A DNA stretch of 64,000 bases from Nitrospirota bacterium. Lineage in GTDB: Bacteria > Nitrospirota > Thermodesulfovibrionia > Thermodesulfovibrionales > JdFR-88. Every line of letters begins with the position of its first letter. Positions within the stretch are counted from its first letter, which is position 1. Where the stretch lies: contig JACWAF010000005.1 of NCBI GenBank assembly GCA_014874185.1, positions 1 through 64,000 of the forward strand, read 5' to 3'. Made by a program: the position numbers and the translations under genes. The notes beneath the pieces were generated by a model. That model was not told the DNA's origin. It worked only from the letters and a program-made list of their open reading frames with translations, and ran no database searches. Positions 1 through 30,852 of the stretch are shown one piece after another.

Positions 1-469
1 GGCGTCTTTTGGACAGCATCTGGGGCCTGATTTCAGAGCGAGAGCAAAACCTGTCCAAAAGCCTGAGATTTCAGAAGGTTATTTCTCTTAAATGAGGCTT
101 TTTAGAATATTTTTTTTCGTGGGAGTCACCCGCCCACGGGTGACCCGATCCGCTTTGGAACAGAAAGGTCCTTTTCAGATTATCTTGGACAGGTCAGGTT
201 TGTAACCTGAACCAAATAGTTCCTCATCTGAAAACCAACTCCGGGTTCAACAGGCCCCTTCGAGTCATCCCCGGCTCGCTCAATTAAGAATGCTCCTCAG
301 GGTCTGCGCTCCTGAAAACAGAACTGGGAGCTTTCTGTTTTAAAAGGAATTTTTTGGCTCTTCCGGGCGTGTAGTCCCCCTCTTTTCCAAAGAGGGGAAT
401 TCCACAGAAAAGTCTGAAGAACCAATTTTTTAAGGCAGGGAGGCAATACAAAAGAAGGAGACGGGAAAA
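1..469. other. Non-coding region downstream of panD
   Basis: I see no convincing gene here. It holds three inverted repeats: TTTTGGACAG at 7-16 against CTGTCCAAAA at 51-60; GTCACCCG/CGGGTGAC at 125-144; and TCAGGTT/AACCTGA at 194-210. A fourth hairpin at 377-397 (CCCCTCTTT/AAAGAGGGG) belongs to the dispersed palindrome family found elsewhere in the window. None is followed by a T-run on the panD strand, so none is a clear intrinsic terminator. Confidence 0.5.
377..397. repeat. Short dispersed palindrome (CCCCTCTTT hairpin)
   Basis: Perfect 9-bp stem with a 3-nt loop. Nearly the same sequence recurs at 8296-8316. It lies just past panD and could fold in the operon's 3' transcript. Confidence 0.6.
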
Positions 470-25481: not shown

Positions 25482-25697
25482 CTATCCGGGCCCCTCCCTT
25501 CTGCTGTTGCCGTCAGTCTTTTCGGCCTCTTCCCCGTCTTCCCTTTCCACCTTCTCGCCTGGTATCCTGTAATCCCCGCCCGCCCACCGGCCAAGGTCTA
25601 TTGTCCTGCACCTCTCGGAGCAGAAGGGCCGCCAGGGGTTGCCCTCCCATTCGATTTCCTTGCCGCACTGCGGGCAGCGAAGTTTTTTCTTCTTCAT
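25482..25697 (-). CDS. yacG: DNA gyrase inhibitor YacG
   Basis: 71-aa zinc protein that binds GyrB in E. coli and inhibits gyrase. The four zinc ligands are in CPQC and CSERCR, with the family tail [16 protein letters not shown]. The acidic C-terminal tail is longer than usual. It overlaps apbE by 4 nt. The usual neighbour coaE is absent. Confidence 0.93.
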
Positions 25698-26737
25698 TTC
25701 TTTATTATGTTGACCTTTCCTTTCAGGTTGTCCGAGATGAAAACCTTCCCGTTGTCGTCGATGGTAACCGCCCCGAAGCCGAGCCGTTCCAACTGTTTCA
25801 CCCGTTCAATGCCCTTCTGCGGGCCCATGACGAATATCCCCGTGGAGAACCCGTCAGAGAGATAGCCATGCGGCGCGATTATGCTTACGCTTTCGAACCC
25901 CCTTGCCGGATAGCCGGTCCTGGGGTTCAGGATATGGAAGTACATGACGCCGTTTTTGAAGAAATATCGCTCGTAGTCGCCCGATGTCGATATGCCCTGG
26001 TCAACAAGCTCCACAGTGGCGAATATGCCGCTTTGGCCATGGCCTTCAAGAGGGCGCGGGTCACGTATCGCAACCAGCCAGCCGTGCCCGTCGGGTTTCC
26101 TGCCGAACGCCTTTATGTCCCCGGCTATGGCAATAAGCCCGGCCTTTATCCCGTGCTCTTTCAGCACCCGCTCGGCATAGTCAGCGCCCCAGCCCTTGGC
26201 TATCCCGCCCGTGTCGAAGGTCATGCCCTTTCGTTTTAGAAAGACGGTCGAGTTTTTAGGGTCTACCACCACCTGCCTGTAATCCACGTCCTTCAAGGCC
26301 TTCTTTATGGCCGCGTCAGAGGGCTTTATCTGCCTGTGGAAGTCCCACTGGCTTATAACAGGGCCGATGGTGCCGTCAAAGCCTCCGTCGGTCATTTTGG
26401 AGGCATAGAGGGCGTCCTGCACCAGGTCCAGCGTCTCAGGCGAGACCTTCACCGGCGCGACGCCGGCCTTGTCGCTGATGGCCCATATCTCGCTCTTTTT
26501 GTCCCAGAAACTTATCAGCTTTTCCAGCCTGTGGAGTTCGGCAAAGGCGGCGTCAATTGCCCCGTTGGCCTGCCTGCTGGAATCCGATACAACCGTGATC
26601 GTTACAAGCGTATCCATGATAATAGAGCTTTTTTTATAGATATTCTGTTCCGGCCTGGGGGAGCATGAAAAGAGCATAAAAGCGCACAGGAACAGAGAAA
26701 AAACTGAAAGACGTCTATTTAAGATATTGATTTTCAT
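25694..26737 (-). CDS. apbE: FAD:protein FMN transferase, lipoprotein
   Basis: Attaches FMN to Thr/Ser of flavoproteins such as Nqr/Rnf subunits in the periplasm. The 347-aa protein has a lipoprotein signal ([13 protein letters not shown]; Cys is the lipidation site). ApbE motifs include [26 protein letters not shown] and [12 protein letters not shown]. The long open frame reaches 26854, but those extra codons are an inverted repeat (26757-26841), so the start is placed at the ATG at 26737. No flavoprotein target is encoded nearby. Confidence 0.93.
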
Positions 26738-26756
26738 GGATGACCATGCACTCCAG

Positions 26757-26841
26757 GTCATTCCCGCGAAAGCGGGAATCCAGATCCAAAAATGTTTTTT
26801 GAAAGGCTTACAAACTGGATTCCCGCTTTCGCGGGAATGAC
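26757..26841. repeat. Inverted-repeat element with 27-nt perfect arms
   Basis: Left arm 26757-26783 and right arm 26815-26841 are perfect reverse complements around a 31-nt centre. The arms contain ATTCCCGCGAAAGCGGGAAT. Translated, this gives the familiar false peptide HSRESGNP. It is a MITE/REP-like dispersed element common in many genomes, upstream of apbE. Confidence 0.85.
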
Positions 26842-26882
26842 GAACTATTTTCACTTTTCCTCCTGATTGAAATGCTGTTCAC

Positions 26883-26962: not shown

Positions 26963-29473
26963 TTAATCGGAACCCTTTCCCAGCTTCCTCTTCAATGCCT
27001 CCCCCGTATGGGAGCCGGCAGTGGCCGCGACTTCCTCCGGCGTGCCCTGGGCCACCAGGTAGCCGCCTTCCTCCCCGCCCTCCGGGCCAAGGTCTATTAT
27101 GTAATCCGCCGATTTTATAATATCCAGGTTATGTTCCACAACAATTACCGTATTGCCCTTTTCCACCAGCCCGGTGAGCACCTTCAGAAGTTTCTCTATG
27201 TCCACGAAATGAAGTCCGGTCGTGGGCTCGTCAAGTATGTAGAGGGTCCGTCCGGTCCCTTTCTTTCCGAGTTCCCTTGAAAGCCGCACCCGCTGCGCCT
27301 CCCCGCCGGAGAGGGTTGTGGCGGGCTGGCCCAGTTTCAGATACCCAAGCCCCACATCGTCAAGAACTCTGAGTTTTCTTTTTATGGGCAGCACGTGCTC
27401 GAAGAACTCACAGGCCTCGGAGATGGTCATCTCCAGGACTTCGGAGATGTTCTTCCCCTTGTACTTTATATCAAGCGTCTCCCTGTTATAGCGCTTGCCG
27501 CCGCACTCGTCGCACAGGACGTAGACATCTGGCAGGAAGTGCATCTCAACCTTCTTTAGTCCCTCGCCCTTGCAGTTTTCGCACCTGCCGCCGGGCACGT
27601 TGAAGCTGAAGCGTGATTCCTTATAACCCCTAACGCGCGATTCCCCGGTCAGGCTGAAGAGCCGCCTTATATAGCTGAAAATGCCCGTGTATGTTGCCGG
27701 GTTGGAGCGCGGTGTCCTCCCCAGCGGGGCCTGCTCTATTGCCACTATCCTGTCCAGGTGCTCCGTACCTCTTATCTCCCTGTGCTTTCCGGGTGTGGGC
27801 CCGGCCTTGTAGAGTTCCCTCTCAAGCGCCCTGTATAAAATATCGTAGACAAGCGTGCTCTTCCCGGAGCCGGACATGCCCGTCACGCAAACGAACATGC
27901 CCAGGGGTATTCGCACGTCCAGGTTTTTCAGGTTATATGCCTGCGCTCCCACTATCTCCAGAAATTTTCCATTCGGAGGCCTTCTTATGCCGGGCACGGG
28001 TATCTCACGCGCGCCTTTCAGGTAGAGGCCGGTAATGGAATTGGCATTTCGTTTTATCTCTTCGGGGCTTCCGGAGGCGATAACCTTTCCGCCCAGCACG
28101 CCCGCGCCTGGCCCCATATCCAGTATGTGGTCCGCGCGGAGCATCGTTTCCTCATCGTGCTCCACTATTATTATCGTGTTCCCCTGTGTCTTCAGCATGT
28201 CCAGGCTGTCCAGCAGGCGCATGGAGTCCCTGGGGTGAAGCCCTATCGTGGGCTCATCCAGGAGATACAGCACCCCCGTAAGGGAGGAGCCTATCTGGGT
28301 GGCCAGCCTTATCCTCTGCGATTCCCCGCCCGAGAGAGTGAGCGAGGTGCGGGAAAGGGTGAGATAGCCAAGCCCGACCTTCTCAAGAAAATGAAGCCTT
28401 TCAGTGACCTCTTTCAGGAGGCGCTCGGCTATGACCTGCTCCCTGGGGCCAAGCTCAAGTCTTTTTACAAACTGCCTGGCATCTTTAACCGGAAGCGACG
28501 CGAACTCGCCTATGTTCTTTCCCGCTATTTTTATACTGAGGGCCTCTGGCCTCAGCCGGAGCCCCTTGCATGCCTTGCAGGGCCTTTCTTCAACGATCTC
28601 CTCGGTCTCCTCGTCGATGTACTCGTAGCCCAGCCCCCGGCAGGCCGGACATGCGCCCGAAGAGCTGTTGAATGAGAAGAACATCGGGTTTATCTCAGGG
28701 TAGCTTATCCCGCAGTTGGGGCAGACCGCCTTCCTGCTGAATACCATGTCCTCGCCCCTGTCTATCAGGTTCACGACAATGGTATCCGAATACCGCAGGG
28801 CGCACTCTATCGAGTTCTTGAGCTGCCTTTCTATCCCGGGCTTTATTATGAGCCTGTCTATGACGATCTCGATCGTATGGCGCTTGTAGCGGGCAAGCTT
28901 CACGTCCTGGGTGATGTCCGCCATCTGCCCGTCTATACGCGCCCTTATGAAACCCTCGGAGCGCATCTCGGCAATCTCTTTCCTGTACTCGCCCTTTCTG
29001 TCGCGGACTATCGGGGAGAGCACCTGTATCCTGGTCTTCTCCGGGAACTGAATAAGTGTGTCCAGGATATCCGAGGTCTCCTGCCCGGCTATCTGCGAGC
29101 CGCACTTATAGCAATACGCCTTCCCAAGCCGCGTGTAGAGCACCCTCATGTAGTCGTAGATTTCTGTTATGGTGCCCACGGTGGAACGGGGGCTCTTGGT
29201 CACGGTCTTCTGGTTGATCGCGATGGAGGGGGAGAGCCCTTCGATGGAATCCACGTCCGGTTTTTGAAGCTCCCCAAGGAACTGCCTGGCATAGGGCGAG
29301 AGGCTTTCAACATACCGCCTCTGTCCCTCGGCATAGAGCGTGTCTATCGCCAGGGAACTCTTCCCGGAGCCGGACGGGCCGGTTATGACCGTGGTCTTCT
29401 GCCTGGGGATGCGGACGTCTATATTTTTTAGATTGTGCTCCCTTGCGCCCTTTATGATTATGAAGTCTTGCAT
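26963..29473 (-). CDS. uvrA: UvrABC excinuclease subunit A, compact form
   Basis: ATPase that finds DNA lesions and loads UvrB. Two ABC modules are visible: Walker A GPSGSGKSS and GMSGSGKST, signatures LSGGESQRI and LSGGEAQRV, and two Walker B DEPT sites. Zinc pairs CYKC, CPNC...CPAC...CKAC and CENC...CDEC are present, as is the UvrB-binding region after the first Walker A. At 836 aa it is about 100 residues shorter than E. coli UvrA: the segment between CRGLG and the CKAC pair is only about 18 residues. The start at 29473 is chosen for GGAAGGG just upstream. Confidence 0.94.
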   Translation of the reverse strand: MQDFIIIKGAREHNLKNIDVRIPRQKTTVITGPSGSGKSSLAIDTLYAEGQRRYVESLSPYARQFLGELQKPDVDSIEGLSPSIAINQKTVTKSPRSTVGTITEIYDYMRVLYTRLGKAYCYKCGSQIAGQETSDILDTLIQFPEKTRIQVLSPIVRDRKGEYRKEIAEMRSEGFIRARIDGQMADITQDVKLARYKRHTIEIVIDRLIIKPGIERQLKNSIECALRYSDTIVVNLIDRGEDMVFSRKAVCPNCGISYPEINPMFFSFNSSSGACPACRGLGYEYIDEETEEIVEERPCKACKGLRLRPEALSIKIAGKNIGEFASLPVKDARQFVKRLELGPREQVIAERLLKEVTERLHFLEKVGLGYLTLSRTSLTLSGGESQRIRLATQIGSSLTGVLYLLDEPTIGLHPRDSMRLLDSLDMLKTQGNTIIIVEHDEETMLRADHILDMGPGAGVLGGKVIASGSPEEIKRNANSITGLYLKGAREIPVPGIRRPPNGKFLEIVGAQAYNLKNLDVRIPLGMFVCVTGMSGSGKSTLVYDILYRALERELYKAGPTPGKHREIRGTEHLDRIVAIEQAPLGRTPRSNPATYTGIFSYIRRLFSLTGESRVRGYKESRFSFNVPGGRCENCKGEGLKKVEMHFLPDVYVLCDECGGKRYNRETLDIKYKGKNISEVLEMTISEACEFFEHVLPIKRKLRVLDDVGLGYLKLGQPATTLSGGEAQRVRLSRELGKKGTGRTLYILDEPTTGLHFVDIEKLLKVLTGLVEKGNTVIVVEHNLDIIKSADYIIDLGPEGGEEGGYLVAQGTPEEVAATAGSHTGEALKRKLGKGSD

Positions 29474-29542
29474 GTCCCTTCCTGCATATAATTCAACCAT
29501 TTAGTATAAAAAATACCGGCCTGTTCTTTCAAACTGAATTTT

Positions 29543-29576: not shown

Positions 29577-29969
29577 ATGCGCTGGATTTTCATAACCGCC
29601 TTTGTTATTGCTTTTACCTTTCCGGTGTCCGTTAAAGCCAGCCCTCCCAGGGCTGTGTTCCAGAGTGAAGATTACGATTTCGGAGATGTAATGGAGGGAG
29701 TTACCCTGCAGCACGATTTCATCCTGAAAAACGCGGGGACGGACGTGCTTGTGATCAAGAACATCATACCGACATGAGGGTGCACCGCGGCGCTTGCCAG
29801 TTCGGCAAGATTGAACTCCGGACAGGAGGCAAGGATAAGCGCTAAAGTTGACACCAGGGGCCACAGCGGCCTTATGCTGAAGGGCATAAAAGTGCTCACC
29901 AATGACCCGCAGGTGCCGGCGATAATGCTTTTCATGCGGGCGAACATAGAGAAAGACAAGAAAGATTGA
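29577..29969 (+). CDS. DUF1573 exported protein with in-frame TGA: probable selenoprotein
   Basis: Reading through one TGA gives a complete 130-aa DUF1573 protein: signal peptide about 1-21, FQSEDYDFGDVMEG, FILKNAGTDVLVIKNI, then the conserved cysteine motif, then SGQEARISAKVDTRGHSG and VLTNDPQVPA. The TGA (29775-29777, codon 67) replaces the first Cys of the family's CGCT motif, giving U-G-C-T. The frame continues intact to a stop at 29967. A hairpin suited to a bacterial SECIS lies just behind it. DUF1573 function is unknown; periplasmic redox work is inference. The alternative is a fresh nonsense mutation. No selA, selB or selC gene lies in the window. Confidence 0.6.
29778..29809 (+). promoter_or_regulatory. 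SECIS-like hairpin after the in-frame TGA
   Basis: CTTGCC (29793-29798) pairs perfectly with GGCAAG (29804-29809) around the loop AGTTC. The stem starts 15 nt after the TGA, and the loop has a G at its second position. Distance and loop fit what is known of bacterial SECIS elements, which sit inside the reading frame just past UGA and bind SelB. Confidence 0.5.
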
Positions 29970-30000: not shown

Positions 30001-30852
30001 ATGATCAGAAAGGCCGTCCTTTTCCTGAGGATGATAAAGTTTACCCACTCCGTATTCGCGCTCCCTTTCGCCTTCACGGCGGCCATTATCGGGGCAGGCG
30101 GCATACCGTCCCTGAAACAGGCCCTCTGGATAGCCCTGGCCATGGTTGGGGCGCGCTCCGGGGCGATGGCCATGAACCGCATAATAGACAGGAAGATGGA
30201 CGCGCTGAACCCGCGCACGCGGGGCAGGGAGATACCCTCGGGCAAGCTCCGCTTAAGCGAGGCCGCGTTCTTCGCGGCGGTCTCCTTCGCCCTCCTCGTG
30301 TATTCCGCCTACAGGCTGAACCCGCTCTGCTTCAAGCTTTCGCCCCTGGCGATCCTGATAGTGATCTTTTATTCCTACACGAAACGGTTCACCTGGGCGG
30401 CGCACATTTTTCTGGGCATGTCGATAGCTCTTGCCCCGCTTGGGGCCTGGATAGCCGTGACCGGGACCGTGGGCCTGAAAATCATTCCCATGGTAATAGC
30501 GGTCGTCTTCTGGCTCGCGGGCTTCGACATCCTTTACGCCCTGCAGGATCTGGACTTCGACCGCGCACACGGGCTTTTTTCCATCCCCGCGCGTTTCGGC
30601 ACCGGAAAATCACTGCTCATTTCGAGGCTCTGCCACGCGGTGTCCATAGCGATGCTCGTCCTGACGGGGTTTTTATTCGGACAGGGCGTCTTTTACTGGG
30701 CGGGGATGGCCTTCGTCTGCGCCCTGTTCGCCTACGAGCATTCCCTGGTCAGGGAGGACGACCTTTCCAGGCTTGACATGGCCTTCTTCAACATGAACGG
30801 CTGGATAAGCGTAAGCGTGCTTTTTTTTACGGCCCTCTCTTATCTGGCCTAG
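30001..30852 (+). CDS. UbiA-family polyprenyltransferase (menaquinone, MqnP-like)
   Basis: 283-aa membrane prenyltransferase with about eight hydrophobic segments. The first Asp-rich motif is N59-R-I-I-D63-R-K-M-D67; the second is ALQDLDFDRAHGLFSIP. The closest type is the putative 4-hydroxybenzoate polyprenyltransferase that acts in the futalosine route to menaquinone. GGAGGACCAC precedes the ATG. No other quinone gene is in the window, so the exact substrate is inferred. Confidence 0.88.
   Translation: MIRKAVLFLRMIKFTHSVFALPFAFTAAIIGAGGIPSLKQALWIALAMVGARSGAMAMNRIIDRKMDALNPRTRGREIPSGKLRLSEAAFFAAVSFALLVYSAYRLNPLCFKLSPLAILIVIFYSYTKRFTWAAHIFLGMSIALAPLGAWIAVTGTVGLKIIPMVIAVVFWLAGFDILYALQDLDFDRAHGLFSIPARFGTGKSLLISRLCHAVSIAMLVLTGFLFGQGVFYWAGMAFVCALFAYEHSLVREDDLSRLDMAFFNMNGWISVSVLFFTALSYLA

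What the first reader, a model, noticed from the sequence alone, without database searches (positions are those of the whole stretch)
29577..29969. Probable selenocysteine in a DUF1573 protein
One in-frame TGA falls exactly on the first cysteine of the conserved CGCT motif, the next Cys remains (U-x-C), the frame after it encodes the rest of the domain without damage, and a 6-bp hairpin with loop AGTTC starts 15 nt downstream. A random nonsense mutation would rarely hit the single most conserved Cys and leave a good SECIS-like hairpin. Ordinary gene callers would report two fragments. It suggests a periplasmic or surface redox selenoprotein.
Basis: partly seen in the sequence, partly recalled or inferred. 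Interest (0 to 1): 0.87.

Follow-up and report, generated by a model that had tools for sequence, protein, structure and literature searches.

The report
Selenocysteine DUF1573 protein in a Nitrospirota
The apparent stop codon in this small secreted protein is very probably read as selenocysteine, as it is in about a hundred related genes across the Nitrospirota, so the gene is intact; the family was already known to contain selenoproteins, but this branch falls below the standard annotation threshold.

Summary
Window 29577-29969 encodes a secreted DUF1573 protein with one in-frame TGA (29775-29777) at the first cysteine of the CGCT motif, followed by a 6-bp hairpin with loop AGTTC. The selenocysteine reading is strongly supported. 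The genome has selA, selB, tRNA-Sec(UCA) and selD, itself with an in-frame TGA. In the same order, 106 of 116 homologous domains carry TGA at this exact codon, with only one other in-frame TGA in all of them. The hairpin is conserved with compensatory changes. Cys-coding homologues lack it, and in three Nitrospirota families with Cys-coded copies all 16 genomes tested lack selA.

The kind is not new: DUF1573 is a listed selenoprotein family (OS_HP2, motif UGC). None of the Nitrospirota members tested (0 of 176 genomes in the order, 0 of 396 in a phylum sample) reaches NCBIfam's cut-off, so they are probably mis-annotated. The newer part lies in relatives: many Sec-DUF1573 domains are fused to a two-haem-motif cytochrome c, some to SCO1/SenC, and six proteins carry two domains, each with its own UGA and hairpin, beside NosD-like copper genes. 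Best functional guess, inferred: a periplasmic selenol/thiol redox partner of haem or copper proteins.

The parts
29577..29969 (+). Sec-DUF1573 (OS_HP2-type) gene, 130 aa with UGA read as Sec; final stop TGA 29967-29969
   Evidence: translation with TGA=U; Pfam DUF1573 68.9 bits; NCBIfam OS_HP2_seleno 82.2 bits, below its 100-bit cut-off
29577..29642 (+). probable N-terminal signal peptide (MRWIFITAFVIAFTFPVSVKAS)
   Evidence: read from the translation; hydrophobic N terminus, no predictor run; inference
29658..29945 (+). DUF1573 Ig-like (PapD/ASH-like) beta-sandwich domain
   Evidence: Pfam residues 28-123; AlphaFold2 model pLDDT 92.7; Foldseek hits to HYDIN PapD-like domain 2e6j and P. gingivalis 2qsv
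29775..29777 (+). in-frame UGA, Sec67 (U of the U-G-C motif)
   Evidence: 106/116 aligned domains of the order have TGA here
29781..29783 (+). Cys69 codon TGC, partner of Sec67 in U-x-C
   Evidence: conserved in 95 of the 106 TGA-bearing domains
29793..29809 (+). bacterial SECIS-type hairpin: CTTGCC / loop AGTTC / GGCAAG
   Evidence: fold; covariation in relatives; absent from Cys homologues
26963..29500 (-). uvrA, divergently transcribed neighbour; conserved in 29 of the loci
   Evidence: NCBIfam UvrA 1304 bits; clustering
30001..30852 (+). UbiA-like prenyltransferase (MqnP-like), downstream neighbour in 15 loci
   Evidence: TIGR01475 303 bits, over its cut-off; clustering
25694..26854 (-). 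ApbE-like FAD:protein FMN transferase, beyond uvrA; ApbE also near the gene in 16 related loci
   Evidence: clustering

Best explanation
The gene is an intact selenoprotein gene of the DUF1573/OS_HP2 family. SelA, SelD and tRNA-Sec(UCA) make Sec-tRNA; SelB bound to the hairpin at 29793-29809 delivers it to the UGA at 29775, so the ribosome reads through and makes a 130-aa exported protein. The mature protein is a single Ig-like beta-sandwich carrying a U-x-C pair (Sec67-Gly-Cys69) in a loop between two strands. Most likely that pair forms a selenylsulfide/dithiol couple, or a soft metal site, used in periplasmic electron or metal transfer with haem or copper proteins. Shown by sequence comparison: recoding signature, machinery, family, fold. 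Inferred: export, actual Sec insertion, redox or metal function.
For: Full Sec machinery in the genome. TGA at one aligned codon in 106/116 domains, one other in-frame TGA in all of them. SECIS hairpin: 71 distinct sequences 93.2% paired against 15-43% for slid registers; formal count on 34 sequences 95.8% paired, 5 of 7 pairs with changes on both sides, covariation 0.540 against 0.283 shuffled, 0/500; the window's own 5-nt-loop version 89.8% paired, 3 pairs compensated. Cys forms (TGC/TGT) lack the hairpin. Of 20 genomes with Cys-coded copies 4 have selA; of 19 with TGA copies outside the order 17 have a selA match, one of them partial. selA in 154/176 genomes of the order. Conserved place next to uvrA and ubiA. 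Redox/metal role: C-terminal cytochrome c with two CxxCH in 39 related proteins, SCO1/SenC fusion in 2, NosD-like and ResA-like neighbours of the multi-domain forms.
Against: No experiment. The window copy is on a long branch (1.11) and about 40% identical to its relatives, so relaxed constraint cannot be ruled out. G073 has a TGA copy with a hairpin but no selA, selB or tRNA-Sec found, and G212 (96% complete) a TGA copy but no selA; assembly gaps are likely but not shown. The function is unproven; the window copy itself has no haem or copper domain and sits beside uvrA and ubiA, not a redox operon.
Confidence: 0.95

Rival explanations
1. The TGA is a nonsense mutation or sequencing error and the gene is a pseudogene.
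For: A single stop in an otherwise normal frame; the window copy is a long branch.
Against: The same codon is TGA in scores of independent genomes, the rest of the frame is undamaged, and the hairpin is kept by compensatory changes.
Confidence: 0.02
2. UGA here is read as another residue, for example Cys by a selC*-type tRNA-Cys or Trp by general readthrough.
For: The genome carries a long-variable-arm tRNA-Cys resembling selC* tRNA-Cys, a class known from Nitrospirae (PMC7609411), some members of which elsewhere have a UCA anticodon.
Against: Its anticodon here is GCA; the tRNA found with UCA is the tRNA-Sec. The family's codon switches to TGY in genomes without selA, as expected for Sec.
Confidence: 0.02
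3. The TGA is a genuine regulated stop: a truncated 66-aa product is the main product and readthrough a rare selenium-dependent event.
For: Sec insertion competes with termination (general knowledge of bacterial Sec decoding).
Against: The half after the TGA is conserved as protein in all relatives, and the Cys forms make the whole domain without a stop; 66 aa would be half an Ig fold.
Confidence: 0.02
4. Functional rival: the domain is a structural or adhesive Ig module in which U-x-C only makes a metal or structural contact, not a redox couple.
For: The nearest solved folds are structural PapD/ASH-type domains.
Against: Sec is rarely kept for structure (general knowledge); 39 fusions with cytochrome c and 2 with SCO1; the U/C position is the most conserved of the family.
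Confidence: 0.25

Closest known systems
OS_HP2 family (seleno)protein, NCBIfam NF041425; 'DUF1573 domain-containing protein, UGC' in selenoproteome reviews (PMC9312934, PMC13188914); OS_HP2/pfam07610/UxC in the GOS survey (PMC2398784)
   Same: DUF1573 domain with U-x-C at the same place, short exported protein
   Different: 82.2 bits against a 100-bit cut-off; 0 of 176 genomes of the order and 0 of 396 in the phylum sample reach it, so this is a divergent branch. Many relatives add cytochrome c, SCO1 or a second Sec domain, which the review tables do not mention (they list one Sec).
Cys-containing DUF1573 proteins (Pfam PF07610), e.g. the Nitrospirota CGCT copies L144-L163
   Same: Same domain and motif; several have the same C-terminal two-CxxCH cytochrome c
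   Different: TGC/TGT instead of TGA, no SECIS, mostly in genomes without selA
Porphyromonas gingivalis protein 2qsv and HYDIN/ASH PapD-like domains
   Same: Fold (TM-score 0.59-0.70 by query); distant sequence match to 2qsv, E 2.5e-5
   Different: About 20-24% identity; no comparison of the U-x-C loop was made

Membership tests
Bacterial selenoprotein (Sec-encoded) | In-frame UGA aligned with a conserved Cys in homologues | tested here: met
   TGA 106/116, Cys in 7; Cys forms of L144-L163
Bacterial selenoprotein (Sec-encoded) | SECIS hairpin just 3' of the UGA, conserved as structure, G in the first two loop bases | tested here: met
   loop AGTTC
Bacterial selenoprotein (Sec-encoded) | selA, selB, selC, selD in the genome | tested here: met
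Bacterial selenoprotein (Sec-encoded) | Selenium in the protein (75Se or mass spectrometry) | not testable with these tools
   needs a wet experiment
DUF1573 (PF07610) | Score over Pfam's gathering threshold | tested here: met
   68.9 against 26.1 bits
OS_HP2 (seleno)protein NF041425 | Score over the curated 100-bit cut-off | tested here: not met
   82.2 bits, 75.5 in the genome search; full-length match 2-98/98
OS_HP2 (seleno)protein NF041425 | U-x-C motif at the DUF1573 CGC position | tested here: met
   motif as listed in PMC2398784 and the reviews

The most novel reading that the evidence does not exclude
Nitrospirota use Sec-DUF1573 as a general module for periplasmic haem/copper redox chemistry: a lone domain (as here), a domain fused to a cytochrome c or SCO1, and a two-Sec tandem form whose second domain has lost the partner cysteine (U-K/R-x), so that it would act with a lone selenol, beside NosD-like copper-site assembly genes.
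Probability: 0.3. Interest if true: 0.6.

Novelty: new member of a known kind. Interest (0 to 1): 0.42.

Why it matters
Standard annotation would call this gene truncated or two fragments. At least 106 DUF1573 domains in one order carry the same UGA and none of their genomes reaches NCBI's curated cut-off for the known selenoprotein family, so a whole clade of selenoproteins is probably missed. The Sec/Cys switch that follows presence of selA across Nitrospirota families is a clean natural experiment, and the fusions with cytochrome c, SCO1 and two-Sec tandems give the first concrete lead to what DUF1573 selenoproteins do.

Tried and rejected
Single-sequence fold energy of the hairpin is not significant (z -0.24), so it was not used as evidence. 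AlphaFold2 without an alignment gave a poor model (pLDDT 54.9); with 66 relatives 92.7. The search for related loci with the DUF1573 protein found nothing in genome contigs and viral contigs, probably because its peptide patterns encode Cys at the TGA; the neighbouring UbiA was used instead to name relatives. The six Cys-coded domains within the order are a separate clade (100/99 support), not recent Sec-to-Cys reversions; better Sec/Cys pairs came from other Nitrospirota families. The selD hairpin was looked at: it is not of the AGTTC type, so no shared loop is claimed between genes. The original 2007 Olavius paper is not held.

Full report
Observation. The window contains an ORF from ATG 29577 that meets TGA at 29775-29777 and continues in frame to the stop at 29967-29969. 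Read through, it is a 130-residue protein with a hydrophobic N terminus and a full DUF1573 domain (68.9 bits, cut-off 26.1, residues 28-123) that spans the TGA. The TGA is residue 67, in IPT-U-G-C-TAA. The hairpin CTTGCC-AGTTC-GGCAAG lies at 29793-29809, 15 nt after the TGA. Its energy alone is unremarkable.

Machinery. The same genome (2.43 Mb, 100% complete by estimate) has tRNA-Sec with anticodon UCA (71.9 bits), SelB (359.8 bits), SelA (627.2 bits) and SelD (348.3 bits, with one in-frame TGA of its own, SSCAGU). The order is not named by the tools; its make-up fits Thermodesulfovibrionales, which is inference.

Comparison. A search of 176 genomes of the order found homologues in 90, nearly all with exactly one TGA inside. 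I fetched the loci and aligned 116 domains: 106 have TGA at the aligned codon, 7 have Cys and 3 other residues; 115 have no other in-frame TGA and one has one. Two rows (L044, L131) are the same gene. Of the 106, 95 keep the second Cys (U-x-C). Chance nonsense mutations would be spread over about 110 codons.

Hairpin. In 71 distinct sequences the stem TGA+18..24 with +31..37 is 93.2% paired, against 15-43% when slid, with loop AGTTC(N) or GGTTC/GGGTC. A count on 34 sequences gives 95.8% paired, five of seven pairs changed on both sides, covariation score 0.540 against 0.283 shuffled with 0 of 500 shuffles as high, and 14-41% when slid. The window's own version has a 5-nt loop, shared with its family members (CTTGCC/GGCAAG; 89.8% paired, three pairs with compensatory change). 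The multi-domain group has the hairpin three bases further on in most cases, 96.8% paired. Cys-coded homologues lack the hairpin.

Sec/Cys switch in the phylum. A sample of 396 Nitrospirota genomes showed families with no TGA in the gene. Fetched copies have TGC or TGT at the codon (TTSCGCTA and the like) and no matching stem, while 20 TGA copies outside the order all have a hairpin in the right place by eye or by fold. selA was found in 17 of 19 TGA genomes (one match partial; the two without are 96% and 74% complete) and in 4 of 20 genomes with Cys copies; the three families f22, f24 and f28 have none (0 of 16). These counts are not corrected for relatedness. Within the order, 8 TGA-bearing genomes lacked a good selA hit; 7 of them have SelB or tRNA-Sec over cut-off and one, G073, has neither.

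Context and architecture. uvrA lies divergently upstream in 29 loci, and a UbiA-like prenyltransferase downstream in 15, so the window gene is at the family's usual place. Of 100 TGA-bearing proteins, 45 are single domains like this one, 39 (38 distinct genes) carry a C-terminal region with two CxxCH motifs, Pfam cytochrome c in the one tested (44.7 bits), 14 have a long N-terminal region with a weak CarboxypepD_reg match that looks cupredoxin-like to me (not tested), and 2 an N-terminal SCO1/SenC domain (66 bits). Six of the 14 have two DUF1573 domains, each with its own TGA and hairpin; in the second the partner Cys is missing (U-K/R-x-A-T). These multi-domain genes lie beside NosD-like, ABC-2 permease, ResA-like and cytochrome bd-like genes.

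Structure. With 66 relatives AlphaFold2 gives pLDDT 92.7; the U-G-C motif (67-69) is the loop between strands 58-65 and 70-74. Foldseek finds PapD/ASH-like Ig folds (HYDIN 2e6j, P. gingivalis 2qsv).

Known status. NCBIfam has OS_HP2_seleno (NF041425), which matches end to end at 82.2 bits, below its cut-off of 100; none of 176 genomes in the order and none of 396 in the phylum sample reaches it. Reviews list DUF1573 with motif UGC as a prokaryotic selenoprotein family with one Sec (PMC9312934, PMC13188914), and the ocean metagenome survey lists OS_HP2/pfam07610/UxC (PMC2398784). So the reading is right, and the kind is known. What I did not find in the held papers is the Nitrospirota radiation, the cytochrome c and SCO1 fusions or the two-Sec form; only three held papers mention DUF1573 at all, so absence there means little.

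Mechanism. Sec insertion is as good as sequence can show. The function is inferred: an exported Ig-like domain presenting Sec-Gly-Cys, repeatedly coupled to haem or copper proteins, most simply does selenol/thiol redox or soft-metal transfer in the periplasm. Only 6 of 9 architecturally distinct lines were not examined for neighbours in depth, so the copper link applies to the multi-domain group and is only suggestive for the window gene.

Noticed in passing
L002:1497-1593 (-), i.e. G000:C37:56224-56316: A 97-nt tRNA-Cys(GCA) with long variable arm that scores 52.3 bits on the tRNA-Sec model; it resembles selC* tRNA-Cys, a class described from Nitrospirae (PMC7609411). Similar 50-58-bit second hits occur in relatives, not identified.
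   Followed up: partly
L106, L113, L078, L080, L087, L088 (related loci): Proteins with two DUF1573 domains, each with its own in-frame TGA and hairpin; the second domain lacks the partner Cys. Review tables list one Sec for this family.
   Followed up: partly
L101, L102 (related loci): SCO1/SenC domain fused to a Sec-DUF1573 domain, near NosD-like genes: a possible copper-chaperone selenoprotein.
   Followed up: partly
L033, L038, L067 and about 35 further related loci; also Cys forms L144-L151: DUF1573 fused to a C-terminal region with two CxxCH motifs, in Sec and in Cys forms alike.
   Followed up: partly
L122 (genome G073): TGA-bearing copy with hairpin in a 92%-complete genome in which no selA, selB or tRNA-Sec was found: assembly gap or recent loss of the Sec trait.
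   Followed up: partly
window 26963-29500: UvrA neighbour is 845 aa from its listed start, shorter than the 924-943-aa models; not examined.
   Followed up: no
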